From Bdellovibrionales bacterium (lineage in GTDB: Bacteria; Bdellovibrionota; Bdellovibrionia; Bdellovibrionales; UBA1609): a DNA stretch of 64,000 nucleotides. Location of the stretch: assembly GCA_019637855.1 (NCBI GenBank), contig JAHBUX010000009.1, forward strand, positions 1-64,000, written 5' to 3'. Each line of letters begins with the position of its first letter. Position 1 is the first letter of the stretch. The notes under the pieces were generated by a model. The model was given only the letters and a program-made list of their open reading frames with translations. It was not told the DNA's origin and ran no database searches. Shown piece by piece: positions 40,252 to 56,999 of the stretch. Both the position numbers and the translations under genes were made by a program.

Positions 40252-42852
40252 TTGAAGCGGGAAGATCGCACAGATCGAATACTTATAGCCATTGCGCTGG
40301 TCATACTTTTTTTGACCGGCGGGATGTTCTATTTCGATCAGTGGATGTGGGGCTCGGGCCGTAGTCGCGGAGAGACCATCGGTGTGATCAGCAGTCGCAA
40401 CGGGGATGTGCGCTTAAAGTACCAAGATGATCTGCGCTGGTCGCAAGCCACCAATGGACAGGATCTGGCGTACAACGACGCTGTCTATGCGGGCGCCGGC
40501 TCACAAGCGGAATTGCAAATCAGCAATAGTAAGATGACCGTGACTGAAAACACGCTTGTGGTTTTGCGCCGCGATCAAGATGTGAGTTTTTTGAATCTCA
40601 ATTACGGAACCTTGTTCGGTAAGCTGGCTAAAAACGACAAATTCGTGATCGATACCGGCAATGGTAAGCCGATCGCGCTGCACGCCGGTGCCGGAGCTCA
40701 GATCGTCGTACGCCGCACGGACGGCAAGACGCAATTGGATCTGACCGCGGGCGAAGCTTACGTCACCGTCGATGGTCAGCGCAAAAAGGTCGATAAGTCT
40801 TCGCGTCTTGTGTTCGGCGATAAAACGCCAGCCCTTTTGCAAACGCAGGGCCTGCGTATTTTAAAACCGCTGCGTGATCAAGTGATTGCTTCCGAAGACG
40901 CCGCTCGCATCGACTTCGCGTGGGCATGGGAAAACGCTCGCCCTGCGTCCGCGGGCGAAACCTACAAGCTCGAGTTTTCTGCCGACGCCTCTTTCAACAA
41001 GATTCACATCAGCAAAACGGTGCAAGGCGCGCTCACTACAAGCATGACGGTGAGTCGCTCGGTGTCACTCTTCTATCGCGTTAAAGGTCCGAACGACCAA
41101 GTCTCCGCCATCGAGCAAGTGAACTTCTTGCGCTTGGAAAAGCCGATGATCGTCACGCCTCAAGCTGACGCTCACTTTGAGCTTTCAGCCAATTCTTTGT
41201 CTAAAGTGCCGTTTGAGTTCCGTCGCCCAGAGAAAGCCACGGTGTGGTATCAGATCGCGACCGATGCCGAGTTCAAAGACGTCGTTTTCAATCAAAACAC
41301 TCCCGATCTGAAGCAGATTCAGGAGCTGCCTGTGGGGAGCTACCAGTTGCGCGCGCGCAGCGACTTCGGCAATGGCAAATTGACCGCATGGACCGAAGCA
41401 CGCCCCTTCTTTGTCGACAAGCAGTTGGAGGTCTTCCGTTTGAGCGGGGGGCACGTACCGACCCGAGTTTTGATCCCGAATCGTGCCTATCCGTCTTATT
41501 TGTATAAGGCCGATGAAGAGCAGGTGAAGACCTATCTGGCCGATCAAGGCGTGCTCAAAAAATTCTTCCCTTACAAAGAGGGAGAGATCGACGAGCTTAA
41601 AATCCAGATGGAGACTGGCGAGCAGCGGCTGTATGCGCAGACCGACAGTCGTTGGCCGGCGGAGCACCTGGAGCCGGGGCGCTTCTCCTATAAAACTCAA
41701 GTCAGTAAGCGGGGGTTCAGACCTTCGGAATGGTCGTCGAGCAAGCGGCTGCAGATCGCGATGGAACCGGTTAAGCCCATGGGTGATGCGCTCTACTCCG
41801 ATCCCGACGAGAAGGGGTTAAGGCAGGCACAGTGGGGCTTCACGCCCTTGCTGTATGCCGCGAGCTACGATGTTGAGGTTTCGCCGTCACAAGCCTTTTT
41901 GGATCCGTTGACCATCAAGACGCGGACACCGCGGGTCACCACAGAGCTTCCACAGGGAGGGTTCTACTGGCGGGCGCGAGCGCGCGATCGTCAGGGGCGT
42001 ATCATCAGCGGATTTTCCCAAGCGTATCGCTTGAAGGATCAAGTGGTGAAGGTGCCGCAGTTCCTGGCTAAGAACCAAGAAGAGCGTAAACCTGCGGCCA
42101 CCGAGCGTACGGCTACACGAGCTCAGCGCGTGCGCGAAAAGCCCTGGGAGCGCAGCGGTTGGTGGACTTGGCTTGGTGCCGGCACAAACTATGTGGACTA
42201 CCGTCAGTCGATTCCGACGCGCGGGACGCTGCAGGCCCATCACGTAAAAGGTCCTTCGCAGTATTTTGAGGGTGGGTATACCGGTGGCAATGGCGTCGGC
42301 GGTGTCTTGTCCTACAAGAACACGCCCGGCGAATTCACGATTCCCGGAGTGCCGATCCTGCCCAATACGTTCCGTTGGACATCGATGTCCTTAGAGGGAA
42401 TTGTGCGCAAGACGTCCAGGTTCTCGCTGTTCGATGCGCCGATCGTTTACGGTATGCGGGCGGGTGTGCAGCAGCACAATATCCCGTTCTTGTTCCTGCC
42501 GGCGCTGGCCGACGTTCTGCTGTTAAGGAACAACCAGATGAACACGGCGTCCTTTGGGTTGCTGGCAGAAATGACCCGGGCGCGCTGGAGCTATCAATGG
42601 TTGATGCGCTACCAGTTCCCACTGAGTTCAAAGGCCGATGGCGCGAGTTCCTTCAGTATGCAGCCAGTGTTTGCGTTCGATGGCTCTATGGGTGCTAGCT
42701 ACAACATCACTCAGCGCATGAAGCTGGGATTGTTCTGGTATGGCCAGTGGCACCAGTTCAACTTTGTCTACGGCGATACGGATGTCACGAATACGGGCTT
42801 CCAGTCCTTGTTCTATTCGAACGTGGATGTCCGTTTGGGCGTCGATTTCTAG
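40252..42852 (+). CDS. FecR-like domain protein with Ig-like modules and a barrel-like C-terminus (866 aa)
   Basis: TTG start. One hydrophobic segment (about 10-30) is a signal or anchor. Residues 40-195 read like a FecR domain: GVISSRNGDVRLKYQDDLRWSQATNGQDL, then VTENTLVVLRRD and LDLTAGEAYVTVDGQRKKV. Several fibronectin-like repeats follow (about 210-620; GSYQLRARSD and GGFYWRARARD are typical strand ends). The final ~230 residues are strand-rich (WWTWLGAGTNYVDY, MRAGVQQHNIPFL, MGASYNITQRMKLGLFWYGQW) and end in RLGVDF with a terminal Phe, as in barrels. A single protein may therefore span from a periplasmic sensor to an outer-membrane barrel; this is inference. Confidence 0.83.
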   Translation: MKREDRTDRILIAIALVILFLTGGMFYFDQWMWGSGRSRGETIGVISSRNGDVRLKYQDDLRWSQATNGQDLAYNDAVYAGAGSQAELQISNSKMTVTENTLVVLRRDQDVSFLNLNYGTLFGKLAKNDKFVIDTGNGKPIALHAGAGAQIVVRRTDGKTQLDLTAGEAYVTVDGQRKKVDKSSRLVFGDKTPALLQTQGLRILKPLRDQVIASEDAARIDFAWAWENARPASAGETYKLEFSADASFNKIHISKTVQGALTTSMTVSRSVSLFYRVKGPNDQVSAIEQVNFLRLEKPMIVTPQADAHFELSANSLSKVPFEFRRPEKATVWYQIATDAEFKDVVFNQNTPDLKQIQELPVGSYQLRARSDFGNGKLTAWTEARPFFVDKQLEVFRLSGGHVPTRVLIPNRAYPSYLYKADEEQVKTYLADQGVLKKFFPYKEGEIDELKIQMETGEQRLYAQTDSRWPAEHLEPGRFSYKTQVSKRGFRPSEWSSSKRLQIAMEPVKPMGDALYSDPDEKGLRQAQWGFTPLLYAASYDVEVSPSQAFLDPLTIKTRTPRVTTELPQGGFYWRARARDRQGRIISGFSQAYRLKDQVVKVPQFLAKNQEERKPAATERTATRAQRVREKPWERSGWWTWLGAGTNYVDYRQSIPTRGTLQAHHVKGPSQYFEGGYTGGNGVGGVLSYKNTPGEFTIPGVPILPNTFRWTSMSLEGIVRKTSRFSLFDAPIVYGMRAGVQQHNIPFLFLPALADVLLLRNNQMNTASFGLLAEMTRARWSYQWLMRYQFPLSSKADGASSFSMQPVFAFDGSMGASYNITQRMKLGLFWYGQWHQFNFVYGDTDVTNTGFQSLFYSNVDVRLGVDF

Positions 42853-43803: not shown

Positions 43804-44742
43804 ATGAAATTTCTTAGTCTCGCCGTCGCGGTGACATTCGGCTTTGCAGCCTTTGCCCAAGAGCAAACGCAGTCGACTGAAGCTCAGACGAAACTGAAGA
43901 TTGAAGACACCAAAGAGAAAAACAAAGTCGATGGCGATATCGACCAAGAAATCACGAACGCGAAACTTCGCGCCGAGTCTGGTTCGAAGTCGAAGTGGTC
44001 CGGATCTGCGAGTATCTCGTATATGGGCTCATCTTTGGAAACTCCGTTGGGCAATGAACGTCCGAACACAGCACAAGAAGCTGTTGCTCCACCGGTTTCC
44101 ATGGGTGGTAGCTTGGCTATCCGTTACCGCATGACTAAAAATCAATCCTTAACTGCTGGCGTGGGTTGGGGTTTGGATAGCCCGTGGGAGAAGCAGGAGG
44201 GTAACGTTTCTGATCCGTACCTTTCTTATAACTATGTGGGCAAAATTAAAGGTGTTCAGAATATCGCTACTGTTGCCGGCTCTGTGATCACCAACAATCA
44301 AAGTCGTTCAATCGGTCAAAATGCCGATCTCGGTGTTAGCAACATCATGATGTACGACTTTGATGGCAGCAAATTCACGGTCGGGTTAATCTTGGCGGCC
44401 GATCGCGGATTCTTTGGCGAAGGCAATGCCGCTCGTCAACGTGAATGGACCTTTGGTGCCTATGTTCCCATGGAATACGCATTCAATGACACTGTTCAAT
44501 TGCGTACAGTCTTCCGTCCTTGGACGGTGTACAGAACTGCAGCTCAAGAGAGCTGGACGTTCAACTCTATCCGTTGGACGCAATCTCTTGGCGTCGCTGT
44601 TGCTGTTACTCGCGATATCAACCTCTACCCGAATTTTCAGTGGGATGTTGAACAATGGCGTGGCAATGACTACAACTTCTTCTCTAAAGATGTTCGCGCC
44701 AACTCGACTGTTGGTTTGCAGGCAGCGATCAACGTTTTTTAA
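43804..44742 (+). CDS. Outer-membrane barrel protein, tandem paralogue 1 (312 aa)
   Basis: Signal peptide MKFLSLAVAVTFGFAAFA-Q. The mature N-terminus is a charged segment (TEAQTKLKIED, KVDGDIDQEITNAKLRAESGSKS) nearly identical to that of the next gene. The rest is strand-rich and ends in LQAAINVF with terminal Phe, a barrel signature. A GAAGAGG ribosome site precedes the ATG. The leader hairpin, good promoter and own terminator suggest high expression. Possible porin; the specific family is not recognised. Confidence 0.87.
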   Translation: MKFLSLAVAVTFGFAAFAQEQTQSTEAQTKLKIEDTKEKNKVDGDIDQEITNAKLRAESGSKSKWSGSASISYMGSSLETPLGNERPNTAQEAVAPPVSMGGSLAIRYRMTKNQSLTAGVGWGLDSPWEKQEGNVSDPYLSYNYVGKIKGVQNIATVAGSVITNNQSRSIGQNADLGVSNIMMYDFDGSKFTVGLILAADRGFFGEGNAARQREWTFGAYVPMEYAFNDTVQLRTVFRPWTVYRTAAQESWTFNSIRWTQSLGVAVAVTRDINLYPNFQWDVEQWRGNDYNFFSKDVRANSTVGLQAAINVF

Positions 44743-44826: not shown

Positions 44827-45789
44827 ATGAAACTCACATCTTATGCACTTACAATTTCATTGTTATTTTCCGGAACTGCTTTTGCTCAGGAAACAAAGTC
44901 TACCGAGGCTCAAACGAAGCTGAAGATCGAAGAAACAAGAGATAAAAACAAAGTCGATGGTGATATCGATCAGGAGATCACTAACGCTCGTATGCGTGCG
45001 GATAGCGGATCGAAATCCCGCTACTCATTGTCAACGGGCCTCTCGTACACCGGTGGTGCGGTCAAGAGTGCGTTCGGTTCGGGGCGTCCCAATCTGTCGG
45101 GTGAGCCTGGTGTACAAACGGATACCAGTGCGCAAATTGACGTCAGCGGCCGTTACCGCTGGACGAAAAACGATAGCTTAACGTTTGGTACGGCGCTCGG
45201 CATGCTCACGCCATTTCAGGGCAAAGTTGGAAAAAGAGATCAGATGAACTGGTCCAATCCGTCCCTATACTATAATCGTGTAGGCAAGCTGGGGCCGCTG
45301 CAAACGACAGCAAAAATCGGCGGCTCGATTGGAACTTCGCAATATTCTGAAAGCGTCGACAATGATTTTAACGTTGCGGTCAGCTATTCGGTCTTAAAAG
45401 CATTCGAGAATCGCTGGACCGCTGGCGTTAGCGTCAATGGTGGATACTTGAACTATGATTCGAAGCCCGGTGAAAACCTTGCTAACCGTAGCAAGATGTA
45501 TGGTGGCGATAAACGTTCGCAGTTCAATTTAGGGGTTTTCCCCTTTGCAGAATACGCCTTCAACGATACGTATTCGTTCCGCACTGTGTTCGGTTACTTC
45601 AACTGGAAACACCTTTATGGCGACAACAACAAATGGCGTTTGCTGCAAACTTACGTTTATCAGTCTGTTGGCGTGGGCATCTCGGTGACTCGAGATGTGT
45701 ACTTGTACCCGAACATTCAGTTCTTGCCGGGTAATCTGCGTTCGGATTTCACGAACGTATCCATGTCTGCGACCCTCAACGTTTTCTAG
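44827..45789 (+). CDS. Outer-membrane barrel protein, tandem paralogue 2 (320 aa)
   Basis: Signal peptide MKLTSYALTISLLFSGTAFA-Q, then the same charged leader as its neighbour (STEAQTKLKIEETRDKNKV, DGDIDQEITNARMRADSGSKS). The barrel part has diverged but keeps landmarks (YRWTKNDSLTFGTALGML, FPFAEYAFNDTYSFRTVFGY, GVGISVTRDVYLYPNIQF) and ends NVF. It arose by tandem duplication of the preceding gene. It follows the first terminator by 31 bases, so it depends on read-through or its own promoter. Confidence 0.88.
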   Translation: MKLTSYALTISLLFSGTAFAQETKSTEAQTKLKIEETRDKNKVDGDIDQEITNARMRADSGSKSRYSLSTGLSYTGGAVKSAFGSGRPNLSGEPGVQTDTSAQIDVSGRYRWTKNDSLTFGTALGMLTPFQGKVGKRDQMNWSNPSLYYNRVGKLGPLQTTAKIGGSIGTSQYSESVDNDFNVAVSYSVLKAFENRWTAGVSVNGGYLNYDSKPGENLANRSKMYGGDKRSQFNLGVFPFAEYAFNDTYSFRTVFGYFNWKHLYGDNNKWRLLQTYVYQSVGVGISVTRDVYLYPNIQFLPGNLRSDFTNVSMSATLNVF

Positions 45790-45864: not shown

Positions 45865-46920
45865 TTAGAGCGTGAAAGTGTAGGCTACCCGCACACCTAG
45901 TTCGGTGGCTTTGTTGTCCCACGTTTCATCGACCGTGTCGGTTTTGTCTTTTAGCTTGGTTGTGCGGTTGTTCCAGAATACGTCCAGCCCCATGCCGTGG
46001 CGGGGATTGAAATCAAAGCCAGTGCCGATCTTTAAATAGTAGCTGGAGTTGGACTTCGAAGTGACTGAACCCGAGCTGCCAATGCCCAAACCGTGATTGT
46101 AGCCCGCTGTCGAACGGAACAGGAGACGATCAGTGATCGGGGATTGATACGTCAGATTTAAACCGGCCACGATGTCTTGCAAACGATCCAACTTCAACTT
46201 CGTACCCGACACCCACGACAGCACCGGGTAAGCGTCGTTACCAATGTCGAAGCCGGGGCAGATCTGTTGAAAAAAGCTCGACGAGCCAAAGAAGCAATAG
46301 CGCATCTTTGCGTAGTAGATATCATAGCCCGCTTTGCTCTCTTGGAACTGGCGCCCGCCAACACCACTTCCGGTTTTGGCTTCATCCATTTTTAGTTCGG
46401 CATGCGTGTACTCAAAGCCGACGGCGAAGCGGGGAGTGCTGACCAAGTCATAAGCCACACCGTAACCCAAGCTGTTGCTGCGGAAGTTGAAGTCCTGACC
46501 GCCCTGACTCCAAGTTGCCGCCACACTCTTCGGTACCACCAAGGCGCTCAGGCGATGTTTAGGATACCCAACATAGGTGCGAAACGGGGCATCGTCACTC
46601 ACGCTGTCATTGTAGGTTTCGGCCGCGGTCGGAGTCAGGCTTTCACCCTCCTCTTTGAACTGGATCATAGGGACTGAGCTTGCCTTTTCTTTCATTGATG
46701 CTTCATCAATGCGGAAGTTGAGAACTTCACCGGGCGCCACTTTGCTGCCGGCCCCCGCTGCCGCAGACGGCGCTGTCTCAGTCGTTGCAGGTTTAGTGGC
46801 GGCCTTCTTTGCTGACTTCTTGGCTTTCGGTGTTGCCGGAGCTTCTTGTGCATTGGCCGCTGATGCGGCCGTGGTCAGAGCGAAGAACAATCCAAGAACA
46901 AGATTCAAGGCGCTATTCAT
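45865..46920 (-). CDS. Outer-membrane barrel protein with Ala/Lys-rich linker (351 aa)
   Basis: Signal peptide ending in SAANA-Q, then an Ala/Lys/Thr-rich low-complexity linker (about 25-62: APATPKAKKSAKKAATKPAT). From about 110 the protein is strand-rich (FRSNSLGYGVAYDLVS, FAVGFEYTHAELKM, AGYDIYYAKMRYCFF, LLFRSTAGYNHGLGI) and ends LGVRVAYTFTL, a barrel end with a hydrophobic terminal residue. The linker may contact peptidoglycan. It is convergent with the tandem barrel genes across a shared terminator. No named family. Confidence 0.85.
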   Translation of the reverse strand: MNSALNLVLGLFFALTTAASAANAQEAPATPKAKKSAKKAATKPATTETAPSAAAGAGSKVAPGEVLNFRIDEASMKEKASSVPMIQFKEEGESLTPTAAETYNDSVSDDAPFRTYVGYPKHRLSALVVPKSVAATWSQGGQDFNFRSNSLGYGVAYDLVSTPRFAVGFEYTHAELKMDEAKTGSGVGGRQFQESKAGYDIYYAKMRYCFFGSSSFFQQICPGFDIGNDAYPVLSWVSGTKLKLDRLQDIVAGLNLTYQSPITDRLLFRSTAGYNHGLGIGSSGSVTSKSNSSYYLKIGTGFDFNPRHGMGLDVFWNNRTTKLKDKTDTVDETWDNKATELGVRVAYTFTL

Positions 46921-47098
46921 GTTGGCGAACCCTTTGTTGAGCTTACGGAGACGTTAGCATTTTGAATCCCAGTACATAAGCCTGGTGTTAAAGGAGCTTA
47001 AGAAATCTGGACCATGGTTGATGAAAGAGATCTTTGAACTCCAAGCAAGCCGCGCTACCATTTATTCATTCTCCCCAAGAATTTTATTGGAGGCATCT

Positions 47099-47803
47099 AT
47101 GATTCGGGGTCTTTTGGCGAGTTCTCTTCTGGCGATCGCGGCATTGGGCGCGACGGCAGCGCAAGCTCAGGTTGAGATCTATTGTAAGCTTCGTTCGGGT
47201 GGCTCCGCGTTGGAGTGCCAATCGACGGGCAAGGACAAACGTGTGATGACCGCCGAAGACATCACCAACTTTGTGGACGCCGGTGAAGTCGCCGCGTTTA
47301 TCACATTGAAGAGCAAAAAAGGCATCGAGCGCACGTACATGTTGGATCCCAAAGCCCCGCAATACAAAAGATTGGGCGAAGTGAAACGCAACTCTTCGAT
47401 CTCCGAGATCGCCAAAGCCAAAACTGATCTGTTCAACGAGATCGAAAAGAGAGTGATCGAGACTTCCGACAAACTCGACGCTCAAGCCTCAACCGCTGAG
47501 CTGGTCTTGTGGGACCCGGGACTTTCTTACGACAAATTCCATCGCGAACAGCGTACGATGGTGGCGGAGCTCGATGGCTACCGCAAAAACCGTGACAAGG
47601 TGTGCACCAGCACGCCGGCTTTCGAACAGGTGTCGAAGGCCAATTCGAAACTGCAACAGACCCTCTCCAATATCGTGTTCGCGTTCCAGACGCCTGGAAC
47701 CTGTATGTCGAGTTTCAAGGTCTTCAAAGATCGTGACGGCTCGATCGATCTGCGCCAGTTGGACGGAGTGAGCGATCAGTACAGAGAGAGCTGTAAGAAG
47801 TAA
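47099..47803 (+). CDS. Secreted protein of unknown function (234 aa)
   Basis: The start is the ATG at 47099 with TTGGAGG upstream; a frame from 46985 would bury the signal peptide. MIRGLLASSLLAIAALGATAAQA is the signal. The mature part has Cys residues in YCKLRSG and ECQST, a helical region (about 95-150, SEIAKAKTDLFNEIEKRVI), and CTSTP...TCMSSF...SCKK towards the end, suggesting several disulfides. The family is not recognised. A strong terminator follows. Confidence 0.78.
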   Translation: MIRGLLASSLLAIAALGATAAQAQVEIYCKLRSGGSALECQSTGKDKRVMTAEDITNFVDAGEVAAFITLKSKKGIERTYMLDPKAPQYKRLGEVKRNSSISEIAKAKTDLFNEIEKRVIETSDKLDAQASTAELVLWDPGLSYDKFHREQRTMVAELDGYRKNRDKVCTSTPAFEQVSKANSKLQQTLSNIVFAFQTPGTCMSSFKVFKDRDGSIDLRQLDGVSDQYRESCKK

Positions 47804-47832
47804 GCCAAATCACTCATCGGGTGAGTGAGAAG

Positions 47833-47857
47833 GGCCTAGGGAAACCTAGGCCTTTTT
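47833..47857. terminator. Intrinsic terminator between convergent genes
   Basis: GGCCTAGG (47833-47840) pairs with CCTAGGCC (47845-47852) around GAAA, followed by T5. A weaker hairpin (CACTCA/TGAGTG) lies just upstream. It sits between a rightward gene and the leftward fibre gene. Confidence 0.88.
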
Positions 47858-47870
47858 GTTTTTAGGGGAG

Positions 47871-49241
47871 TTAGTTGGCGAGGTAGTTACATTGAACGTA
47901 CATCGTCACGGTCGTATCCATAGCGAGAGCGGCGTCGGCCACGCCCGTTGTTACCACAGGGTTGTTGCGTAAAGTCACTGTTGTCGAGTTGGGCGCGATC
48001 ACGCCTTTGATCCCGCTACCAGTGAATACGGTTGTTGAATGACCAATGGTACATACCTGGTTCAGGTTTGCCTGGTTGAGCGACGTTTCGGGCAGGCCGG
48101 TCAGTGTCATATTGCCTGTTCCTGTTCCGCCTGAAGTCACAAAGTACCAGTTCAAGAAAACCATTTTACCAATTTTGGTGTAGTAGCAAACGTTGGTCGT
48201 GAATGTCGGTGTACCGGCCACAGTCGTTCCCGTCACCGTCATGGTGCACGTTTGTGCTTCCGCATAGGCTGCCAGATCCGATGTTCCACCGCCGAGGCGA
48301 ACAGCGCCGATAGAGGCCGTACCTGTTACAGCCAAATTGTGGTCAACGGTCAAACCCGTCGGCGAGGCGGCGTACGCAGAAGCGCCAGCGAAGTGGCTTG
48401 TGCCGGAAACGGCAAGCGTAGTCAGATTGCTCAAGGCGCTGACGTCCAAGGCGGCGAAAGAACCGGTGCCGCTGGAGATCAGGTTTGCGACATTGGTCGG
48501 ACCGGTTACGGTCACGCCGTCAGCAAATGTCTTCACGCCAGCAAAAGTCTGAGTCGAAGTGTCGACGATACCCGCTGCTCCCGTACCCGCCGTCGGCAGG
48601 TAAGCCGAACCCACAGTGCCCGAGTCGATTTGACCGCCACCGATATTGGGAAGAACGCTGATATCCAAGAGACCTGCGGCATCCAAGCGTACAAGTTTAC
48701 CGTCATCTGCGGCGCCTGCCGAAGCCACAGTCATAGCGCCAGTCGCCATCGAGGCCGTACCGATGCTGCCGTCAATCACGTTCTTTGCGGTTTCCGCGAT
48801 ATAGGAAGTAGGGACAGAGGCTACAGTGATGTCGAAGCTGGGGTTAGTGCCATCGATGGCACTGATCGCATACACGCGAATGGCGACAGCGCCCGCCGCT
48901 CCACCTGCGAGCAGCGACGGGGTGAGAGACACACCGGACCAATCACCTTGCATGCCCGTTGCGGAGTAAGCGCCTGCGGAGAGATCGTCACCGGCGCCGG
49001 TCAGCGTGCGACTGAACAAGCCGTTTGACACCGCAATCGAGTAGCTTTTCGCCCACACGGTTGCACCGTTTTGGCGCACACCGATCACCATGGTGTAGGT
49101 GCCGTCGCTCACCGCCGTGTTATTGGCTTTTTTCATATAGCCCTGCACCGTGAAACTATCCAGTGTGGGCGCGGCGTGGGCAAGGCTGATCAAAGCCGTT
49201 GCAAGCCACAGAACGGGAGTGAGAAGGGTTTGAGTTTTCAT
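47871..49241 (-). CDS. Phage-tail-fibre-like surface fibre protein (456 aa)
   Basis: Signal peptide MKTQTLLTPVLWLATALISLAHA-A. The N-terminal domain (about 25-150; SFTVQGYMKKANNTAVSDGTYTM, then NGLFSRTLTG) recurs in surface fibres of predatory bacteria. The middle (about 150-330) is Gly/Thr/Ala-rich with repeated strands (LTTLAVSGTSHF, LAVTGTASIGAVRLGG), the pattern of a trimeric beta-helix shaft. The last ~110 residues (VCYYTKIGKMVFLNWYF, MTLTGLPETS) match the receptor-binding tip of phage tail fibres. The layout matches the chimeric fibre (mosaic adhesive trimer) proteins described in Bdellovibrio; assignment to that group is inference. Last gene of a three-gene operon. Confidence 0.83.
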   Translation of the reverse strand: MKTQTLLTPVLWLATALISLAHAAPTLDSFTVQGYMKKANNTAVSDGTYTMVIGVRQNGATVWAKSYSIAVSNGLFSRTLTGAGDDLSAGAYSATGMQGDWSGVSLTPSLLAGGAAGAVAIRVYAISAIDGTNPSFDITVASVPTSYIAETAKNVIDGSIGTASMATGAMTVASAGAADDGKLVRLDAAGLLDISVLPNIGGGQIDSGTVGSAYLPTAGTGAAGIVDTSTQTFAGVKTFADGVTVTGPTNVANLISSGTGSFAALDVSALSNLTTLAVSGTSHFAGASAYAASPTGLTVDHNLAVTGTASIGAVRLGGGTSDLAAYAEAQTCTMTVTGTTVAGTPTFTTNVCYYTKIGKMVFLNWYFVTSGGTGTGNMTLTGLPETSLNQANLNQVCTIGHSTTVFTGSGIKGVIAPNSTTVTLRNNPVVTTGVADAALAMDTTVTMYVQCNYLAN

Positions 49242-49242
49242 A

Positions 49243-50127
49243 CTAGTTAGCCCTCACTGAATTAGTGATGTAGTTGAAGCCAGTTTGAAGTGTCATGCCA
49301 GAGGCACCATTGTCGTTAACCGAACCGGGATAGGCGATGATGGCGGCCTCGAGTTTAAATCCCGAAACGCCGTCAGTGATGGTCGAGCTGCCGGGAAATG
49401 CACCGGCCGCTTTCAGGCTAATATTAGGTGACCACTCAATCGTCTGTGTAGTGCCAGCGGACTGGTTGCCGGCCAAATCATAAGAGTAGAAAGTGAAATC
49501 TAAAGTCGAGCCCGGGGTTAGCGTCACATCGTGACTCCAGCTGGTGCCAGACGGAGTGATCGTTACGCCACCGGGGCCAGTCAGCTTCACCGTGTCGGTG
49601 CTCACGCTGCCTAGAATTTGAAACACAGCATCCGAGCCGCTGTGTTCGTAAGGACTGCCTGAAGGAGTCGAGATCACCGGCGCGCTCGGAGCAGTGGCAT
49701 CGATACGCACGTAAGTAGTGGCGGTCGAACCTGAAATCAAAGCGTCGGAAGAGTCATAAGCCGTCAGTGTCAAGGTGATGTCACCTTGAGCGCCGCTCAG
49801 ATAGGTCTTACTGAATGTGAAAGAGCCATCGCCTTGGCAAGTGGCTGTTTCGGTGTAGGCGTTGACCATGATTTTGCTCACACCGCGCGAACAAATGCCG
49901 GCGATGGTCAGGTTCAAGCCTTTGATGTGATAACGATTGTTGTCGTTGGTGTCGATGATGGGCGACCATGATGCGCCCGAGGCGGTCGGGTAAACCAGCG
50001 TCACTGTGATCGCGCCTGTCTCCGAGGATGAACCAGAGGAGGAAATCTGCCCGCCCTTCACGCACGCCGTAACCGAGGCGGTGAGGGTGATGAGTGTTAA
50101 AATGTTGCGAACAAATGACTTCAACAT
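49243..50127 (-). CDS. Lipoprotein with Ig-like domains, operon partner of the fibre (294 aa)
   Basis: Lipobox VTAC (Cys22) after a hydrophobic signal. The mature protein is Ser/Thr/Gly-rich and consists of at least two bacterial Ig-like modules (about 40-145, with GDITLTLTAYDSSD; about 146-235, with VRIDATAPSAPVISTPSGSP and the hallmark FTFYSYDLAGNQS). It ends one base before the fibre gene begins and starts six bases after the coiled-coil gene ends, so it is the middle of a tight operon. A surface anchor for the fibre is a plausible role. Confidence 0.85.
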   Translation of the reverse strand: MLKSFVRNILTLITLTASVTACVKGGQISSSGSSSETGAITVTLVYPTASGASWSPIIDTNDNNRYHIKGLNLTIAGICSRGVSKIMVNAYTETATCQGDGSFTFSKTYLSGAQGDITLTLTAYDSSDALISGSTATTYVRIDATAPSAPVISTPSGSPYEHSGSDAVFQILGSVSTDTVKLTGPGGVTITPSGTSWSHDVTLTPGSTLDFTFYSYDLAGNQSAGTTQTIEWSPNISLKAAGAFPGSSTITDGVSGFKLEAAIIAYPGSVNDNGASGMTLQTGFNYITNSVRAN

Positions 50128-50133
50128 AAGTAA

Positions 50134-51426
50134 TTAGTCCTTGTAGTCGCCGCAGCTGCCTTCAACGAAAACCGACTTGCCGGCGCCGTTGGAGATCTCG
50201 ATCCAGTTGCCACCGCTGTCACGGCCCATAAGTTTGCGGCCGGATTCAAAGAAACCCACGGCCTGGCCCGAACTGTTGGGTGTCAGATATGCTTTGCACT
50301 TTTGCTTGGTCATCCACACGCGGCCGCCGTTCAGCAAAGCCGCCGCCTCCGCAGCTGAGGCCAAACCACGACGCTTGCTTTCGGCTTTTTCATTCAAGAG
50401 CACGCGCCGATCGGAAGATTCCACATCGCGATGCAGTTCCGAGCGGGCCGTTTCCACAGCCACTTTGGTGCGCAAAACCAAACCATTGGTTTCCGTCTCT
50501 TGTTCCGCCGCTTGATCGCGGGTTTCGCGAATGCGGGCGGCATAGTCTTTCATCTTCTCAGCTTCGGAAGACAGGCGAATTTGCTCAGCTTCGCCGGCGA
50601 TCTTGGCGCGGTTCGCAGCGAGGATTTCTTTTTCATAGCGGGCCACTTCATCGTTCACGCGTCCCACCACACTGTCACGGGCCTTCTGTACACGCGACAA
50701 ATCCGCTTTGGTTTCGCTTAAGTCTTTCTGCGCCAGGTTCCAGCGTTCACGTGCTTCGTTCAATTGTGCGTTGGCTTCGTCGTTTTGACGTTGGGCTTCA
50801 GCCAAAGCCATTTTGGCCTGCATCCAATCGGTGCGCATTTTCATCTCTTCCGCGTCGAGAGCGGTTTTCTTGGCGTCGGCCGCGGCGAGTTTGGTCTCCA
50901 GGCGGGCGGTGTCGGTCTTCATACGCTGCACGTCGATGCCTTTTTCGTAGATCTCGCGTTCGGAGCGCTTACGCGCGAGCGTGAGATCTGCGATTGTGGC
51001 TTCCATTTTCTTCTGCTCGGCTTCCATGACGGAACGTTCGCCTTGCAAGCGTTTCAAAACCGTTTGCGTATCTTTGTCCAATTGCGCGTGCTGCGTTTCA
51101 TAGCCGCGAATTTGGTCGCGCACATGTTGCAGGCTAGCGTTGAGCATCTCGAGCTCTTCCTGGGCCTTCGCCTGGCGCGTCTTCAATTGCTCAATCTGGT
51201 ACTTATGACCAGCCACCTGACGTTCAGATTCGCGCCGCTTGTTTTCGTAGTCGTCGCGTTTGCGTACGGCTTCGCGTTCCATCTCGTCGGCTTTGGCTTG
51301 CTCGGCCTTTTCTTGGTAGTAGGCGTTGCTTAAAGCGCCATGGGGGAAGTATTGATCCTCCTGTGCGTGTGCCAACGCGGGAATCAGAGAAATCAACAAG
51401 AATTGTAGAGTCCATTTTTTAACCAT
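50134..51426 (-). CDS. Exported long coiled-coil protein with SH3-like C-terminus (430 aa)
   Basis: Signal peptide MVKKWTLQFLLISLIPALAHA-Q. Residues 35-350 are almost pure heptad-type helix (KADEMEREAVRKRDDYENK, QLKTRQAKAQEELEML, MKTDTARLETKLAAAD). The last ~70 residues (AYLTPNSSGQAVGFFESGRKLMG, NWIEISNGAGKSVFVEGSC) have the strand order of bacterial SH3 domains, often wall-binding. It is first in the operon with the Ig-like lipoprotein and the fibre. It could form a periplasmic spacer or tether linking wall and outer membrane; unproven. Confidence 0.85.
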   Translation of the reverse strand: MVKKWTLQFLLISLIPALAHAQEDQYFPHGALSNAYYQEKAEQAKADEMEREAVRKRDDYENKRRESERQVAGHKYQIEQLKTRQAKAQEELEMLNASLQHVRDQIRGYETQHAQLDKDTQTVLKRLQGERSVMEAEQKKMEATIADLTLARKRSEREIYEKGIDVQRMKTDTARLETKLAAADAKKTALDAEEMKMRTDWMQAKMALAEAQRQNDEANAQLNEARERWNLAQKDLSETKADLSRVQKARDSVVGRVNDEVARYEKEILAANRAKIAGEAEQIRLSSEAEKMKDYAARIRETRDQAAEQETETNGLVLRTKVAVETARSELHRDVESSDRRVLLNEKAESKRRGLASAAEAAALLNGGRVWMTKQKCKAYLTPNSSGQAVGFFESGRKLMGRDSGGNWIEISNGAGKSVFVEGSCGDYKD

Positions 51427-51620: not shown

Positions 51621-52565
51621 ATGAAACATAATCTTTTATTTCTTGTTCTCACTTTTATTTTTAGCGCTGGCTGTAAATCAAATCCGCATAAGGCGGAACA
51701 AATCGAAACCAACATGGAGAAGTCCAGTCTGGTTTCTGGTTCTACGGCTGTGGGCGTGAAGAAGGGTGACATGGTCGTGCAGGACAAAGTGCAGATGTCC
51801 GAGAAGCTGCGTGATCTGCAAAATGGTGTCTATTCCCTCGAGGACAAAGTCTATGGTACGCGCAAACTGGGGAGTTTGGGGCTGTACGGTGACTTGAAGT
51901 CCTGTCGGCGCAAGCTTGCTTCGCGGCAGTTCGGCGGCAGCGGCACGATGATGTGGACCGAACCGCTTGATCGCGTGACCGACAAAGAAGAAGAGATGAA
52001 GATCGGTTTGGATGAGAAAAAAGATCTGGTTGGCGTCACTGAAGAGTACCTTAAAGATCGTTTGGCCCGCTTCACCGGTTACAAAACGATTTTGCAAAAA
52101 CGCTCTGACGAATTCGCGGAAAAAATCGAGACCTGCAAAGCCGAGTTGGCAGCCAAAGATATGGACGCCAACGAATCCAATAAAGTGATGGTGCAAGAGG
52201 CACCGAAGGCCTCGTCGGATCGCGCGGCCATCAATCAATATATGTGTGGATTCGTACGCTCGGGAGCGAGTCTTCAAGCCCTGATGATGAATGCTTTTGC
52301 GAAGGGTTGGTTGTCGCTGTCTGACTTTAAGCTGGATCAAAATCTGATTGCGGCAAGTCTCAAAGACGCCAAAGGTTCTTCGCGCGACAACGGCATGCTG
52401 TTCAATGGCTGGAAGCTGTCCTTCGACAACGACAAGGTGACCGTGGGTGAACTTCTGGAAGAGGGTAAAGACGCCCGGCTGCAAGCTTGGAGCTACACTC
52501 GCAAAGAAGAGGTTCCTGGCGCGACTCAATGCTTGGCCGCCGCCGATGGAGTTTGGAACCGCTAG
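51621..52565 (+). CDS. Lipoprotein of unknown function (314 aa)
   Basis: Lipobox SAGC (Cys18) after MKHNLLFLVLTFIFSAGC. The mature part is helical and charged, with coiled-coil-like stretches (YLKDRLARFTGYKTILQKRSDEFAEKIETC) and a C-terminal domain (about 200-314; NQYMCGFVRSGASLQALMMNAFAKGWL, then a final TQCLAAADGVWNR) with several Cys. No family recognised. It is divergent from the fibre operon (194 bases between starts). Confidence 0.82.
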   Translation: MKHNLLFLVLTFIFSAGCKSNPHKAEQIETNMEKSSLVSGSTAVGVKKGDMVVQDKVQMSEKLRDLQNGVYSLEDKVYGTRKLGSLGLYGDLKSCRRKLASRQFGGSGTMMWTEPLDRVTDKEEEMKIGLDEKKDLVGVTEEYLKDRLARFTGYKTILQKRSDEFAEKIETCKAELAAKDMDANESNKVMVQEAPKASSDRAAINQYMCGFVRSGASLQALMMNAFAKGWLSLSDFKLDQNLIAASLKDAKGSSRDNGMLFNGWKLSFDNDKVTVGELLEEGKDARLQAWSYTRKEEVPGATQCLAAADGVWNR

Positions 52566-53285: not shown

Positions 53286-53936
53286 ATGGCAGATTTTTTT
53301 GACATCACTCCGAAAATATCGCCGCGCTTAGCGGTATTCCCTGGCGATCAGCCTTTTGAACGCAAGATCGCGCTGTCCTTTGCCCAAGGTCATCACTTGG
53401 AACTCTCGGCCATGTTGGCCACTCTGCATTTAGGTGCGCACGCCGATGCTCCCAGTCACTACGGGGCACGTGGTGTGAGCATCGACAAACGTTCGCCTGG
53501 GCTTTATATGGGACGAGCGCAAGTCGTGCGTGTGTCGGGGCTGGCGCCCAAAGCGCGGGTGATGCCGCGAGATTTCGACACCCCTGTGCAAGCGCCGCGC
53601 GTCCTGCTCGACACGGGCTCTTTTGTGGACCCTGACCATTGGAACCCGCATTTCAATTCCTACTCGCCTGAGTTGCTGAGCTGGCTGGCCGATCAAGGTG
53701 TAAAGCTCGTGGGTATTGATACGCCGTCGGTGGATCCCGAAGACTCAAAGGCTCTGGAGTCGCATCAGATTTTGCGTCAGCGTGACCTGGCGGTGTTGGA
53801 AGGGTTGTTATTAAAGAACGTGCCCGAGGGCATCTACACCCTAATCGCGCTGCCACTGGCGATTGAAGGCGGCGATGCCTCGCCCGTTCGAGCTGTTCTC
53901 TTGCCCGAAGTGAAGGACTTTCCCGAACTGGCCTGA
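53286..53936 (+). CDS. kynB: Kynurenine formamidase (metal-dependent cyclase type)
   Basis: Hydrolyses N-formyl-L-kynurenine to kynurenine and formate. The family metal motif HxGxHxDxPxH is perfect: HLGAHADAPSH (His48, His52, Asp54, His58). GIDTPSVDPEDSK matches the second signature. The 216-aa length is typical. It faces kynA on the opposite strand (15 bases between the stops). Together they give the first two steps of tryptophan breakdown. Confidence 0.93.
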   Translation: MADFFDITPKISPRLAVFPGDQPFERKIALSFAQGHHLELSAMLATLHLGAHADAPSHYGARGVSIDKRSPGLYMGRAQVVRVSGLAPKARVMPRDFDTPVQAPRVLLDTGSFVDPDHWNPHFNSYSPELLSWLADQGVKLVGIDTPSVDPEDSKALESHQILRQRDLAVLEGLLLKNVPEGIYTLIALPLAIEGGDASPVRAVLLPEVKDFPELA

Positions 53937-53951
53937 TCCTGGCCTAGGTCT

Positions 53952-55037
53952 TTACTTGGAGAAATGAAAACCCAACTCGCGCTCGACCTCTTTGGGTAGC
54001 ACGGGCAGCTTTGAGCGCGGCACAAAAAACGTGGTCAATTGAAACAGATCGCCAAACACCTTGTGTTTGTCGGCGGCGTCTTTCAAATATTGAAAGCCGC
54101 TCGACCCCCCGGTGCCGACTTTAGAGCCCAGCATGCGTTTGGCCATCAGGGCGTGCCTTTGGCGCCAAGTGGTGAAGTACTCGTCCATATCCATAAGAGC
54201 TGTCAGTAGGCGAAATGGCAGCTGCAAAGCGGGTTGGTCGCGATAGAGTTGAATCAAGAGAGCCGCGTGCACGGATTTGTAAGATAGGCGCCAATCGCCA
54301 GCCGCGCGGGCCTGATTGTATTTGTTCTCATCGAACAGAGCGTAGAAAGCATCCAAGGACATTTGCAGGATTTTTTCATTGCGCTCGCGATCGGCGGCGC
54401 CGAGAGCGGGGTTGCTTTGGATGATCTTCAAGTCGTGGGTGAGCACGTCTTGCACGGTTTGCTTGTAGAGGTTCCAGAAGTCAAAGCCCTGCATCTTTAA
54501 AAATGGGGTGCGCTCCAGCCATTTGTCGACACATTCGAACAGCGTGGATTGCGTGTCGAGTTCGGCCATGGACTCACGCTGCTCGGGTTTGAGCAATTGA
54601 TCGTACTCAGATTGGTTGTAGCGCATACGTTGGTCGCGCTTCAGGCCGAGTTTTGTCTCCAGCATGCGAAACTGATGGCTTTGAAAGCCCGAAGCGGGGA
54701 TCAAGAGGTCACGGAACTCGAGAAAATCCAGCGGAGTCATGGTTTCTATGATGCGCACTTGATCGACCAGATGTTTTTGGATTTCGATCACCCGCTGCAG
54801 TCGAGCCACGATTAGGTCCATCAGGCGTTCATCGACACGCTCACCGCGGAAGATGGTTAAGATCGAGTCGAGTTCGGTTAGGATCAGCTTGAACCACAGC
54901 TCGTAAACTTGGTGAACTACGATAAAAAGCATTTCATCATGAGCGGCGTGGCCGCGGGCTTCGCTCTCGGGCTTTTGTGCGCTCAAGAGCTTATCGATCT
55001 GCAAGTAGTCGTGGTAATTCATTTTAGGGTTGAACAT
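53952..55037 (-). CDS. kynA: Tryptophan 2,3-dioxygenase
   Basis: Haem enzyme opening the indole ring of tryptophan to N-formylkynurenine. The start is MFNPKMNYHDYLQID (ATG 55037, with GAGGTG upstream), not the longer frame from 55136, which overlaps the PLP-lyase gene. Signatures are FIVVHQVYELWFK with the distal His, LIPASGFQSHQFRMLE (SGFQSxQFR), and GTGGSSGFQYLK near the C-terminus. The 361-aa length is within the family's range. It is the last gene of a leftward unit with a PLP lyase and an arginase-family enzyme. Confidence 0.95.
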   Translation of the reverse strand: MFNPKMNYHDYLQIDKLLSAQKPESEARGHAAHDEMLFIVVHQVYELWFKLILTELDSILTIFRGERVDERLMDLIVARLQRVIEIQKHLVDQVRIIETMTPLDFLEFRDLLIPASGFQSHQFRMLETKLGLKRDQRMRYNQSEYDQLLKPEQRESMAELDTQSTLFECVDKWLERTPFLKMQGFDFWNLYKQTVQDVLTHDLKIIQSNPALGAADRERNEKILQMSLDAFYALFDENKYNQARAAGDWRLSYKSVHAALLIQLYRDQPALQLPFRLLTALMDMDEYFTTWRQRHALMAKRMLGSKVGTGGSSGFQYLKDAADKHKVFGDLFQLTTFFVPRSKLPVLPKEVERELGFHFSK

Positions 55038-56080
55038 GTTTTCACCTCGGTGATGGCGGTAAGAAGCTTTTGATTGTGCTCGGCGGTCCAGTCCCAGCTG
55101 ATCATCCAGCGGCATAACTGAGTGTCTGAATCCCAAATGTAAAAGAAAAAGCGTTCGCGCAGGTCTTTAAGCAGCGTCTTCGGAACGTGCACAAAGAGCG
55201 CATTGCTTTGCACAGGGAGTGCGATTTTGAAATCCGGGTGGTTCACCCGCAGACGTTCTTCTAAGTCGCGTGCTAGGCCTGTGCTGTGCTCGGCGATCTG
55301 GCGCCATAGATCGTCTTTTAAATAGGCGTAAAACTGCGCGGCTAAAAAGCGTGTCTTCGACGACAGTTGCATCGCTTGTTTGCGATAGAATTTGAACGCT
55401 TGCTTGGCGGCGGGAGTGAAAAGTAAAACCGCTTCCGCACCCATCAGACCGTTTTTGCTGCCGCCCAATGAAACCACGTCGGCGCCCACGCCACGGGTCA
55501 GATCCTCAAGACTCACATCCAAAAACGCGGCGGCATTGGCCAAGCGGGCGCCATCAAGATGCAACATAAGATTTCGTTCTTTGGTAAAACGTCGCCATTC
55601 GCGCAGTTCATCGAGTGAATAGCAAACGCCGAATTCGCTGGGCAAAGTCAGGCTTACGCACTTGGGCTGCGAAAAGTGTTGATCACCCATTCGCTGCAGT
55701 AAGGATTCACACTGTTCCGGTGCGATCTTTCCGTCCCGCGAGGGCAGGGGCCAAAGTTTTGTGCCAAGAAACTTTTCGGGTGCGCCACACTCATCCAAGT
55801 GCAAATGGGCCTGTTCGGAGCAGATCACCGCTTCGAAGCTGCGTACCTGCGTAGCCATCGACAGCACGTTGGCGGCAGTGCCGGTAAACACGTACTGCGC
55901 CTCCACCTCAGGTCCGAAGGCGCGTTTGAACTCGACGGTGGCCAGTTGGCACAGTTCGTCCATGCCGTAGGCGTGAGCATGGCCGCGATTGGCGGCTTGC
56001 AAAGCTTCCATCACCCGCGGATGCACACCGGAGTGATTGTCGCTGCCTAAGCTCAGGGAGAATTTGAGCTCTTCAAACAT
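55019..56080 (-). CDS. PLP-dependent beta-eliminating lyase, threonine-aldolase-like (353 aa)
   Basis: Fold-type I PLP enzyme. The start is MFEELKFSLSLGSDNHSGVHP (ATG 56080), overlapping the upstream arginase-family gene by eight bases. SDNHSGVHPRVMEAL and AHAYGMDE match the LtaE-type N-terminus. CSEQAHLHLDECGA, LHLDGARLANAAAF (Asp of the PLP pocket) and VSLGGSKNG with the PLP lysine follow in order. Cleavage of threonine or a similar beta-hydroxy amino acid is the default. Because kynA follows directly, a role on kynurenine or tryptophan-derived substrates is possible but not shown. Confidence 0.88.
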   Translation of the reverse strand: MFEELKFSLSLGSDNHSGVHPRVMEALQAANRGHAHAYGMDELCQLATVEFKRAFGPEVEAQYVFTGTAANVLSMATQVRSFEAVICSEQAHLHLDECGAPEKFLGTKLWPLPSRDGKIAPEQCESLLQRMGDQHFSQPKCVSLTLPSEFGVCYSLDELREWRRFTKERNLMLHLDGARLANAAAFLDVSLEDLTRGVGADVVSLGGSKNGLMGAEAVLLFTPAAKQAFKFYRKQAMQLSSKTRFLAAQFYAYLKDDLWRQIAEHSTGLARDLEERLRVNHPDFKIALPVQSNALFVHVPKTLLKDLRERFFFYIWDSDTQLCRWMISWDWTAEHNQKLLTAITEVKTCSTLK

Positions 56081-56999
56081 CGTGTAAAAATCCGTGCGCC
56101 AATTGCGCTGCCCATTTGGAAGTGGCGGCGGCCACATCGAGAGTTGGTGCCACCTCGTAAATCCCCAGCGCCCGCACATCCAATCGTTGCAACAAGGTCA
56201 GGTAGAGTGGCCAGAATTCCTGTGGCAGAAGGCCCAGCGGGCCGGGCGCGCTGGCGCCGGGGGCGAAGGGCAGTGCGAAAGCGTCGATATCGACAGCTAA
56301 GAAGGTTGGACGCTTGCGTAAGATCCATTCGCCCAGCGCGCGCACGGTGTACTCAGTCAGGCTTAAACCGGAATCAAAGTACTCTTCCATGGTAAGAATG
56401 CGCGCGCCTTTGCCATGCACGTAGTCCCAGTGGTGCTTGGAGTTGCAGTGGGTCTGAATGCCGAACTCGACAAAGTCAAAGGGTATGCCGCTTTCGAGCA
56501 GACGATAAAACGGAGTGCCGCTGTTCGGGCCGCGTTCGAGATCGCGCACATCGAAATGAGCATCGACGTTGATGATCAGCGGCTTGTCATTGGCATGGGT
56601 TTTTAGAAAAGCAAGGCCGTCGGAGTATGCCCAATCGTTACCACCGCCGAAACTAAGCAGTTGTTGTTTCTGCTTCAGCACATCCTGTGCGGCGCGGGCC
56701 GCCTCTTCGTGGCGTTCAGCCAGCGCGGTTTTAGAATGCAGATCTCCCAGGTCACAGAAACGTTTGCGGGTCCGCTTCGGGTGAGGGGTCATTTTATAAA
56801 GCGCACGCCGGATCTCTTGCGGACCGAGGCGGGCGCCTTCCCGGCCGCCGTTGAGTTTGACGCCCTCATCATCCGGGTAGCCGATAAGGGCCACTTGCGC
56901 CTCTTGCGGCGTGGATTCTGCCAGTTCACCGAGTCGTGGGTCTTTGGGGTCTTGGCGCGAAAAGAACAACGTGGGATCAGCGGGAGTAAACGATTTCAT
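56073..56999 (-). CDS. Arginase/agmatinase/formimidoylglutamase-family enzyme with an altered metal site (308 aa)
   Basis: Ureohydrolase fold. Metal-ligand motifs are LSFGGGNDWAY (118-122), NVDAHFDVR (Asp146, His148, Asp150) and AVDIDAF (Asp237, Asp239). In normal members the first motif is GGDH or GGGH; here the His is Asn121, so one manganese site may be weak or missing. SGTPFYRLLE (160-169) is close to the formimidoylglutamase type. It is first in the unit with the PLP lyase and kynA. The substrate is unknown; an amide or guanidino compound is likely. Confidence 0.9.
   Translation of the reverse strand: MKSFTPADPTLFFSRQDPKDPRLGELAESTPQEAQVALIGYPDDEGVKLNGGREGARLGPQEIRRALYKMTPHPKRTRKRFCDLGDLHSKTALAERHEEAARAAQDVLKQKQQLLSFGGGNDWAYSDGLAFLKTHANDKPLIINVDAHFDVRDLERGPNSGTPFYRLLESGIPFDFVEFGIQTHCNSKHHWDYVHGKGARILTMEEYFDSGLSLTEYTVRALGEWILRKRPTFLAVDIDAFALPFAPGASAPGPLGLLPQEFWPLYLTLLQRLDVRALGIYEVAPTLDVAAATSKWAAQLAHGFLHDV

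What the first reader, a model, noticed from the sequence alone, without database searches (positions are those of the whole stretch)
47871..51426. Three-gene cassette: coiled-coil/SH3 exporter partner, Ig-like lipoprotein and phage-tail-fibre-like surface protein
The genes are separated by 6 and 1 bases. The fibre has an N-terminal anchor-like domain, a repeat shaft and a tail-fibre-like tip, as in the chimeric adhesive fibres described in Bdellovibrio. A coiled-coil wall tether and an Ig-like lipoprotein would form a plausible assembly and anchoring set. The three-part layout may be a conserved prey-recognition module.
Basis: partly seen in the sequence, partly recalled or inferred. Interest (0 to 1): 0.68.

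Follow-up and report, generated by a model that had tools for sequence, protein, structure and literature searches.

The report
Adhesive fibre with lipoprotein anchor candidate
The three genes encode a relative of the fibres Bdellovibrio uses to touch its prey, a lipid-tailed protein made next to it, and a coiled-coil protein; comparing about 100 such fibres suggests that a lipid-tailed partner, also present beside several well-studied Bdellovibrio fibres, may be the unknown piece that holds the fibre on the cell.

Summary
Three same-strand genes, 6 and 1 bases apart, encode a secreted coiled-coil/SH3 protein, a lipoprotein with two Ig-like domains, and a secreted fibre. The same order occurs in four other genomes of the order, across two families. 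It forms the core of a five-gene block with an outer-membrane barrel and a 272-aa secreted protein; the coiled-coil and 272-aa genes occur in the same 8 of 141 genomes. The fibre's N-terminal domain is homologous to that of Bdellovibrio MAT fibres (profile-profile 95%, E 2.7e-8) but fails NCBI's curated MAT model, so it is MAT-like, not a member.

The surprise is the lipoprotein. A lipoprotein gene lies directly upstream of 28 of 98 MAT-type fibres, against 1 of 196 control genes. This includes 6 of 21 MATs in the genome taken as B. bacteriovorus HD100, among them Bd2734, Bd2740, Bd3182 and (by length) Bd2439. The lipoproteins differ in length but share a weak C-terminal motif; searching with it found further fibre-linked lipoproteins. 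The MAT paper leaves the fibres' surface anchor unidentified and its main text does not mention lipoproteins. Best reading: a dedicated outer-membrane anchor or assembly partner. Binding and trimerisation remain untested.

The parts
47871..49241 (-). MAT-like fibre, 456 aa, with signal peptide
   Evidence: NTD homologous to MAT N-terminal domains by hhalign, 95.2% probability, E 2.7e-8
48744..49172 (-). fibre N-terminal domain (residues 24-166), beta-rich, directly after the signal peptide
   Evidence: conserved 28-66% in reported pairs of the six cassette fibres while the C-terminal 140 aa show only weak similarity; beta strands in model
48288..48743 (-). fibre shaft (residues 167-318), low charge, G/T/A/S/N/V/I/L-rich
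   Evidence: composition; length varies from about 140 to 1512 aa among homologues
47874..48287 (-). fibre C-terminal tip candidate (residues 319-456)
   Evidence: position and divergence; no homologue found in phages, IMG/VR or PDB
49243..50127 (-). Ig-like lipoprotein, 294 aa, lipobox ASVTAC (Cys22, Val at +2)
   Evidence: AF2 model; Foldseek to bacterial Ig-like adhesin domains; conserved in six genomes
49423..50010 (-). two Ig-like domains of the lipoprotein (residues 40-143 and 150-235), proposed spacer
   Evidence: pLDDT mostly 80-93; no room for them in the 92-94 aa lipoproteins beside MATs
49246..49416 (-). lipoprotein C-terminal tail (residues 238-294), the element proposed to be shared with other fibre-linked lipoproteins
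   Evidence: alignment; leave-out profile tests; low confidence in the monomer model
50134..51426 (-). secreted coiled-coil protein with C-terminal SH3 domain, 430 aa
   Evidence: close homologues in 8 of 141 genomes of the order
45865..46920 (-). outer-membrane beta-barrel protein (PF13505), fourth gene of the block
   Evidence: Pfam E 3.1e-7 above cut-off; homologue near the cassette or the coiled-coil gene in 7 genomes, the window's included
46985..47803 (+). secreted protein of unknown family, about 234-272 aa, fifth gene of the block
   Evidence: found in the same 8 genomes as the coiled-coil gene, plus one fragment
47828..47857 (+). intrinsic terminator-like hairpin between the convergent 46985 and fibre genes

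Best explanation
The locus makes a MAT-like surface fibre together with its own envelope-attachment set. Shown: the fibre has a MAT-type N-terminal domain, and lipoprotein genes are coupled to MAT-type fibre genes across the order, including in the HD100-like genome. Inferred: the lipoprotein is sorted to the outer membrane (Val at +2), its Ig domains act as a spacer, and its C-terminal tail folds against the N-terminal base of the (probably trimeric) fibre. This would retain the fibre on the surface while the variable tip binds prey or another surface. The coiled-coil/SH3 protein, the outer-membrane barrel and the 272-aa secreted protein are proposed as periplasmic and outer-membrane accessories of this particular sub-type, perhaps linking the base to peptidoglycan.
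For: NTD homology between cassette fibres and MATs: hhalign 95.2%, E 2.7e-8 over 130 columns; unrelated and shuffled controls at most 1.8%. An NTD profile that included MAT rows finds 21 fibres in a 3,782,950-base genome, the number of MATs reported for HD100 (PMC10769870). Lipoprotein gene within 60 bp upstream of 28/98 fibres (6/21 in that genome) against 1/196 control genes (Fisher 4.9e-14; 2.6e-6 for that genome alone). Paired fibres include Bd2734 and Bd2740 (identified by PDB 8OKW and 8OKS) and, by length, Bd3182 and Bd2439. When the tail profile was tested, background proteins among its top scorers (L115, L158, L197 with the cassette held out; L238 in other runs) proved to be fibre-adjacent lipoproteins that had not been used for training. 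Reverse search: 9 of 12 hits that were not used to build the profile and were inspected are fibre-linked. Total length runs from 92-94 aa with no Ig domain to about 300 aa with two. Five-gene co-occurrence: coiled-coil and 272-aa genes in the same 8 of 141 genomes (p 3e-13, no phylogenetic correction); the cassette lipoprotein/fibre sub-family only in 6 of those 8. The MAT paper states that the surface element binding the N-terminal domain awaits identification.
Against: No binding or complex was tested. Most MATs in the HD100-like genome (12 of 21) have no linked tail-lipoprotein, so they would need an anchor in trans or another mechanism. The tail motif is weak: with the cassette group held out the window tail is matched or exceeded by 12 of 760 background tails, L008 and L071 are not distinguished, one non-fibre protein (L073 13288-13821) scores as high as real partners, and a direct profile-profile comparison was weak (probability 4.9%) although the profile contained the window tail. 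Training tails were chosen because they lie beside fibres. Co-transcription alone is compatible with a folding or export helper. Four of the 98 fibres (window, L008, L015, L018) were found through the coiled-coil gene rather than through a fibre search. The +2 sorting rule is from E. coli, and two fibre-linked lipoproteins (L241, L158) have Asp at +2.
Confidence: 0.55

Rival explanations
1. The lipoprotein is an assembly or export helper, not an anchor: like SadB of Salmonella it holds nascent fibre chains in the periplasm, prevents mis-registration, then lets go.
For: SadB is a lipoprotein encoded beside a trimeric adhesin and improves its surface display (PMC3953254). A short tail that is unstructured alone could be a transient binder.
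Against: SadB is an inner-membrane lipoprotein with a MATH-like fold. Here 33 parsed fibre-linked lipoboxes have no Asp at +2 (two others, L241 and L158, do), and long Ig spacers in the cassette copies suit reach beyond the membrane better than a Sec-side helper. None of this is decisive.
Confidence: 0.27
2. The lipoprotein and fibre are two independent adhesins co-regulated for prey contact, with no physical link.
For: Ig-like lipoproteins with bacterial-adhesin-like domains can bind surfaces themselves.
Against: Many partners are only 92-110 aa with no Ig domain, and the shared part is the C-terminal tail rather than an adhesive domain.
Confidence: 0.1
3. The five genes form an envelope structure unrelated to prey, for example for attachment to surfaces or biofilm; this concerns purpose and can be true together with the anchor mechanism.
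For: Patchy distribution (8 of 141 genomes); lifestyle of the window's organism unknown; coiled-coil and 272-aa genes occur without a nearby fibre in the G031 and G069 stretches.
Against: The fibre N-terminal domain is of the MAT type, for which predator-surface display is shown in HD100 (PMC10769870).
Confidence: 0.2

Closest known systems
Mosaic adhesive trimer (MAT) fibres of Bdellovibrio bacteriovorus HD100 (PMC10769870; NCBIfam NF053851 Bdello_MAT_N)
   Same: Signal peptide, then a beta-rich domain of about 130-145 aa homologous by profile-profile comparison, then a repetitive shaft and a divergent C-terminal part.
   Different: Fails the curated NCBIfam model (no hit at E<=10); no S74 domain; short (456 aa); sits in a five-gene block with coiled-coil and 272-aa proteins that were not found in the HD100-like genome.
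SadAB of Salmonella (trimeric autotransporter plus trimeric lipoprotein helper, PMC3953254)
   Same: A long repetitive surface adhesin encoded beside a cognate lipoprotein.
   Different: No autotransporter anchor found by Pfam in the fibre; SadB is an inner-membrane MATH-like protein, whereas here the shared part is a short C-terminal tail with an optional Ig spacer.
RadD / FAD-I of Fusobacterium (adhesin with small lipoprotein in one operon; listed, PMC7023056)
   Same: Small lipoprotein co-encoded with a large adhesin.
   Different: Only the start of the abstract was seen; no sequence comparison was made.
Bacterial Ig-like adhesin domains (Bap C region 7DM0, SiiE 2YN3/2YN5)
   Same: Fold of the two lipoprotein domains.
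   Different: Here they sit in a short lipoprotein and are proposed to be a spacer.

Membership tests
MAT fibres (mosaic adhesive trimers) | curated N-terminal domain model NF053851 at its cut-off (60 bits) | tested here: not met
   window fibre no hit at E<=10; its cassette homologues also fail (best L018, 10.2 bits); positive controls pass: Bd2740 176.5, Bd3182 109.8, own-genome fibres L076 84.2 and L190 100.9 bits
MAT fibres (mosaic adhesive trimers) | homologous beta-rich domain of about 130 aa immediately after the signal peptide | tested here: met
   hhalign A11 against A10 95.2%, E 2.7e-8; controls at most 1.8%
MAT fibres (mosaic adhesive trimers) | conserved base with exchanged tips | tested here: met
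   N-terminal domains 28-66% identical over 137-148 aa in reported pairs; C-terminal 140 aa only weakly similar
MAT fibres (mosaic adhesive trimers) | trimeric fibre | not testable with these tools
   only a monomer could be modelled; mean pLDDT 40.5
MAT fibres (mosaic adhesive trimers) | display on the predator surface and prey binding | not testable with these tools
   needs microscopy and binding assays
MAT fibres, S74 sub-group | C-terminal S74 peptidase/chaperone domain | tested here: not met
   no Pfam family in the window fibre (E<=1) or in the L008 and L015 fibres (E<=0.01)
Trimeric autotransporter adhesin with SadB-type lipoprotein | C-terminal YadA-type membrane anchor in the adhesin | tested here: not met
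   no Pfam family in the fibre
Trimeric autotransporter adhesin with SadB-type lipoprotein | lipoprotein in the inner membrane with MATH-like fold | tested here: inconclusive
   Ig-like fold instead; membrane not determined, Val at +2 suggests outer membrane by the E. coli rule
Phage tail fibre | sequence relatives in phages | tested here: not met
   no match for NTD, shaft plus tip, or tip in 50,697 phage records; tip absent from the IMG/VR scan; no PHROG below E 0.1
Bacterial SH3 domain (SH3_3) in the coiled-coil protein | PF08239 match | tested here: inconclusive
   window 14.5 bits against cut-off 27; best homologue E 5.4e-5

The most novel reading that the evidence does not exclude
MAT-type fibres of Bdellovibrionales are two-part devices: a family of lipoproteins that differ in everything but a common C-terminal tail is the dedicated outer-membrane receptor for the fibre's N-terminal domain, with spacers of different length. 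The window locus is an elaborated version with a peptidoglycan-binding coiled coil and an outer-membrane barrel.
Probability: 0.4. Interest if true: 0.75.

Novelty: new variant of a known kind. Interest (0 to 1): 0.6.

Why it matters
How Bdellovibrio holds its prey-recognition fibres on its surface is stated as open in the MAT paper. This survey names a concrete candidate gene beside several well-studied MATs: Bd2734 and Bd2740 (the two whose deletion slows prey entry), Bd3182, and a fibre matching Bd2439 in length. The question can be tested by single-gene deletion in a laboratory strain. It also shows that MAT-type fibres are spread across the order (100 of 141 genomes) and that one sub-type carries a five-gene accessory set.

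Tried and rejected
1) Phage origin of the tip or base: no match in the phage collection, IMG/VR scan, PHROGs or PDB. 2) Coiled-coil protein as a general partner of MATs: rejected, only 8 of 141 genomes have a close homologue and the HD100-like genome is not among them. PDB hits to its profile are coiled-coil look-alikes. 3) A search of named genomes with the coiled-coil protein found nothing; the fibre NTD alignment found only two records, the same contigs as G133 and G002. 4) Fibre structure: monomer model too poor to search by fold, so no fold search was run. 5) A direct profile-profile comparison of the cassette lipoprotein with the tail profile was weak (probability 4.9%); leave-out tests were used instead. 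6) Tail profile hit G000 C25:146000 (E 0.08) judged chance. 7) Promoter scan no better than shuffles. 9) My notebook entry says all top background hits of the tail profile were fibre-linked; on re-reading, one of the top four in the cassette-held-out run (L073 13288-13821) is not, and the report uses the corrected statement. 10) Failed calls through wrong coordinates or options: 21, 69, 82, 91, 109, 112.
Full report
OBSERVATION. All three have export signals; the lipoprotein has a lipobox ending in Cys22. The coiled coil is supported by composition and heptad periodicity and the C-terminal SH3 by weak Pfam matches that are clearer in a homologue. AlphaFold gives the lipoprotein two Ig-like domains (residues 40-143 and 150-235) with a poorly predicted C-terminal tail. 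Foldseek places the model with Ig-like domains of bacterial adhesins such as Bap and SiiE. The fibre model is poor.

CONSERVATION. The window lies in a 3.37 Mb genome of 26 contigs. Among 141 genomes of the order, homologues of the coiled-coil gene were found in 7 with a single sequence and, with a profile, also in G023 as a short copy. The full order coiled coil > lipoprotein > fibre is found in G002 (same genus), G133 (same family), G030 and G023 (another family). The fibre lengths there are 1807, 1085, 516 and 438 aa, against 456 in the window. G044 has the lipoprotein-fibre pair about 12 kb from the coiled-coil gene on the same contig. G031 and G069 have the coiled-coil gene without the pair on the stretches read; both genomes are incomplete (54% and 81%).

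THE BLOCK IS LARGER. An outer-membrane barrel (45865-46920, PF13505) and a 272-aa secreted protein (46985-47803, no family) travel with the cassette. In G030 and G023 all five genes lie on one strand with short gaps or overlaps. The 272-aa gene is found in the 8 genomes that have a close coiled-coil homologue, plus a fragment in G052. The cassette lipoprotein/fibre sub-family occurs only in 6 of these 8. These probabilities ignore shared ancestry.

FIBRE IDENTITY. Cassette N-terminal domains (A11) against MAT N-terminal domains (A10) give hhalign probability 95.2%, E 2.7e-8 over 130 columns; unrelated alignments and column-shuffled controls gave at most 1.8%. A combined profile (A6, which includes MAT rows) finds members in 100 of 141 genomes and 21 in G007. 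G007 is a single contig of 3,782,950 bases; to my knowledge this is the size of HD100, and 21 is the number of MATs in the MAT paper (PMC10769870). The window fibre itself gives no hit to the curated MAT model NF053851, whereas two other fibres of the same genome and the HD100 MATs tested pass. It is therefore MAT-like, not a member by that test. The cassette fibres keep the N-terminal domain and diverge in the C-terminal part.

THE LIPOPROTEIN. Looking upstream of about 100 MAT-type fibres showed that a lipoprotein gene often ends within a few bases of, or overlaps, the fibre start. With one automatic definition (lipobox gene of at least 60 aa ending within 60 bp), 28 of 98 fibres have one, against 1 of 196 other genes from the same loci. 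In the HD100-like genome 6 of 21 have one: Bd2734, Bd2740, Bd3182 (922 aa), a fibre of 1107/1122 aa (Bd2439 by length), and fibres of 1959 and 1661 aa. A 626-aa fibre (Bd2872 by length) has a divergent one two genes away, and a further one lies directly downstream of a tandem MAT pair. The partners range from 92 to 317 aa. Their common element is the last 45-60 residues, roughly '..sG(y/f)kv..s.G.........sGgykv....G.i'.

HOW GOOD IS THE TAIL EVIDENCE. In leave-group-out tests many held-out tails rank near the top of several hundred background tails. Among the top background scorers, L115, L238, L158 and L197 proved to be lipoproteins next to fibres that had not been used; L073 13288-13821 scored similarly and is not fibre-linked. 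A genome-wide search with the tail profile gave 12 inspected hits not used to build it: 9 beside a fibre gene, two orphans (L271, L273) and one probable chance hit. For the cassette itself the signal is modest: with all six held out the group is shifted (p 3e-4), the window tail is matched or exceeded by 12 of 760 background tails, and L008 and L071 are not distinguished. The coupling by gene order is strong; common descent of the window tail with the HD100 tails is suggested, not proven.

MECHANISM. The MAT paper says that the N-terminal domain presumably binds a predator-surface element still to be identified. Its main text does not contain the words lipoprotein or operon; its supplements could not be read. 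A lipid-anchored partner with a variable spacer and a shared C-terminal tail fits that role. I put the anchor reading at about 0.55 and a SadB-like folding/export helper (PMC3953254) at about 0.27. The roles of the coiled-coil/SH3 protein, barrel and 272-aa protein are inference only.

VERDICT. The added value is the recurrent lipoprotein partner of MAT-type fibres, which makes the open anchoring question directly testable.

Noticed in passing
43804-44742 and 44827-45789: Two tandem paralogous secreted proteins (shared motif STEAQTKLKIE..KNKVDGDIDQEITNA) that look like outer-membrane proteins; no confident Pfam family.
   Followed up: no
53286-56179: Cluster that looks like tryptophan/kynurenine catabolism (formamidase-like, tryptophan 2,3-dioxygenase-like, aldolase-like); its order is kept in G002. 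Names are from reading the sequences, not from a database match.
   Followed up: no
51621-52565: Divergent lipoprotein-like gene upstream of the cassette, 66% identical in G002 in the same place; no Pfam family.
   Followed up: partly
L076 8572-9258 and 9366-14798 (G000 contig C24): A second fibre of the same genome (1810 aa, passes the curated MAT model) with a divergent lipoprotein whose tail resembles the fibre-linked tails; the same divergent layout occurs in L197.
   Followed up: partly
L189, L190, L191, L192 (G000 contigs C19, C10, C14, C25): Four further MAT-type fibres of the window's genome run off contig ends, as expected for repetitive genes, so their lengths are unknown.
   Followed up: partly
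L271 1495-1818 (G039) and L281 1336-1686 (HD100-like genome): A similar small lipoprotein sits beside the same downstream genes (one methyltransferase-like) in both, but only the HD100-like genome has the MAT pair next to it.
   Followed up: no
40252-42852 and L190 6179-8704: Large proteins (866 and 841 aa) of the same genome with similar N-termini, one a few genes from the window cassette and one close to a MAT fibre; relationship judged by eye only.
   Followed up: no
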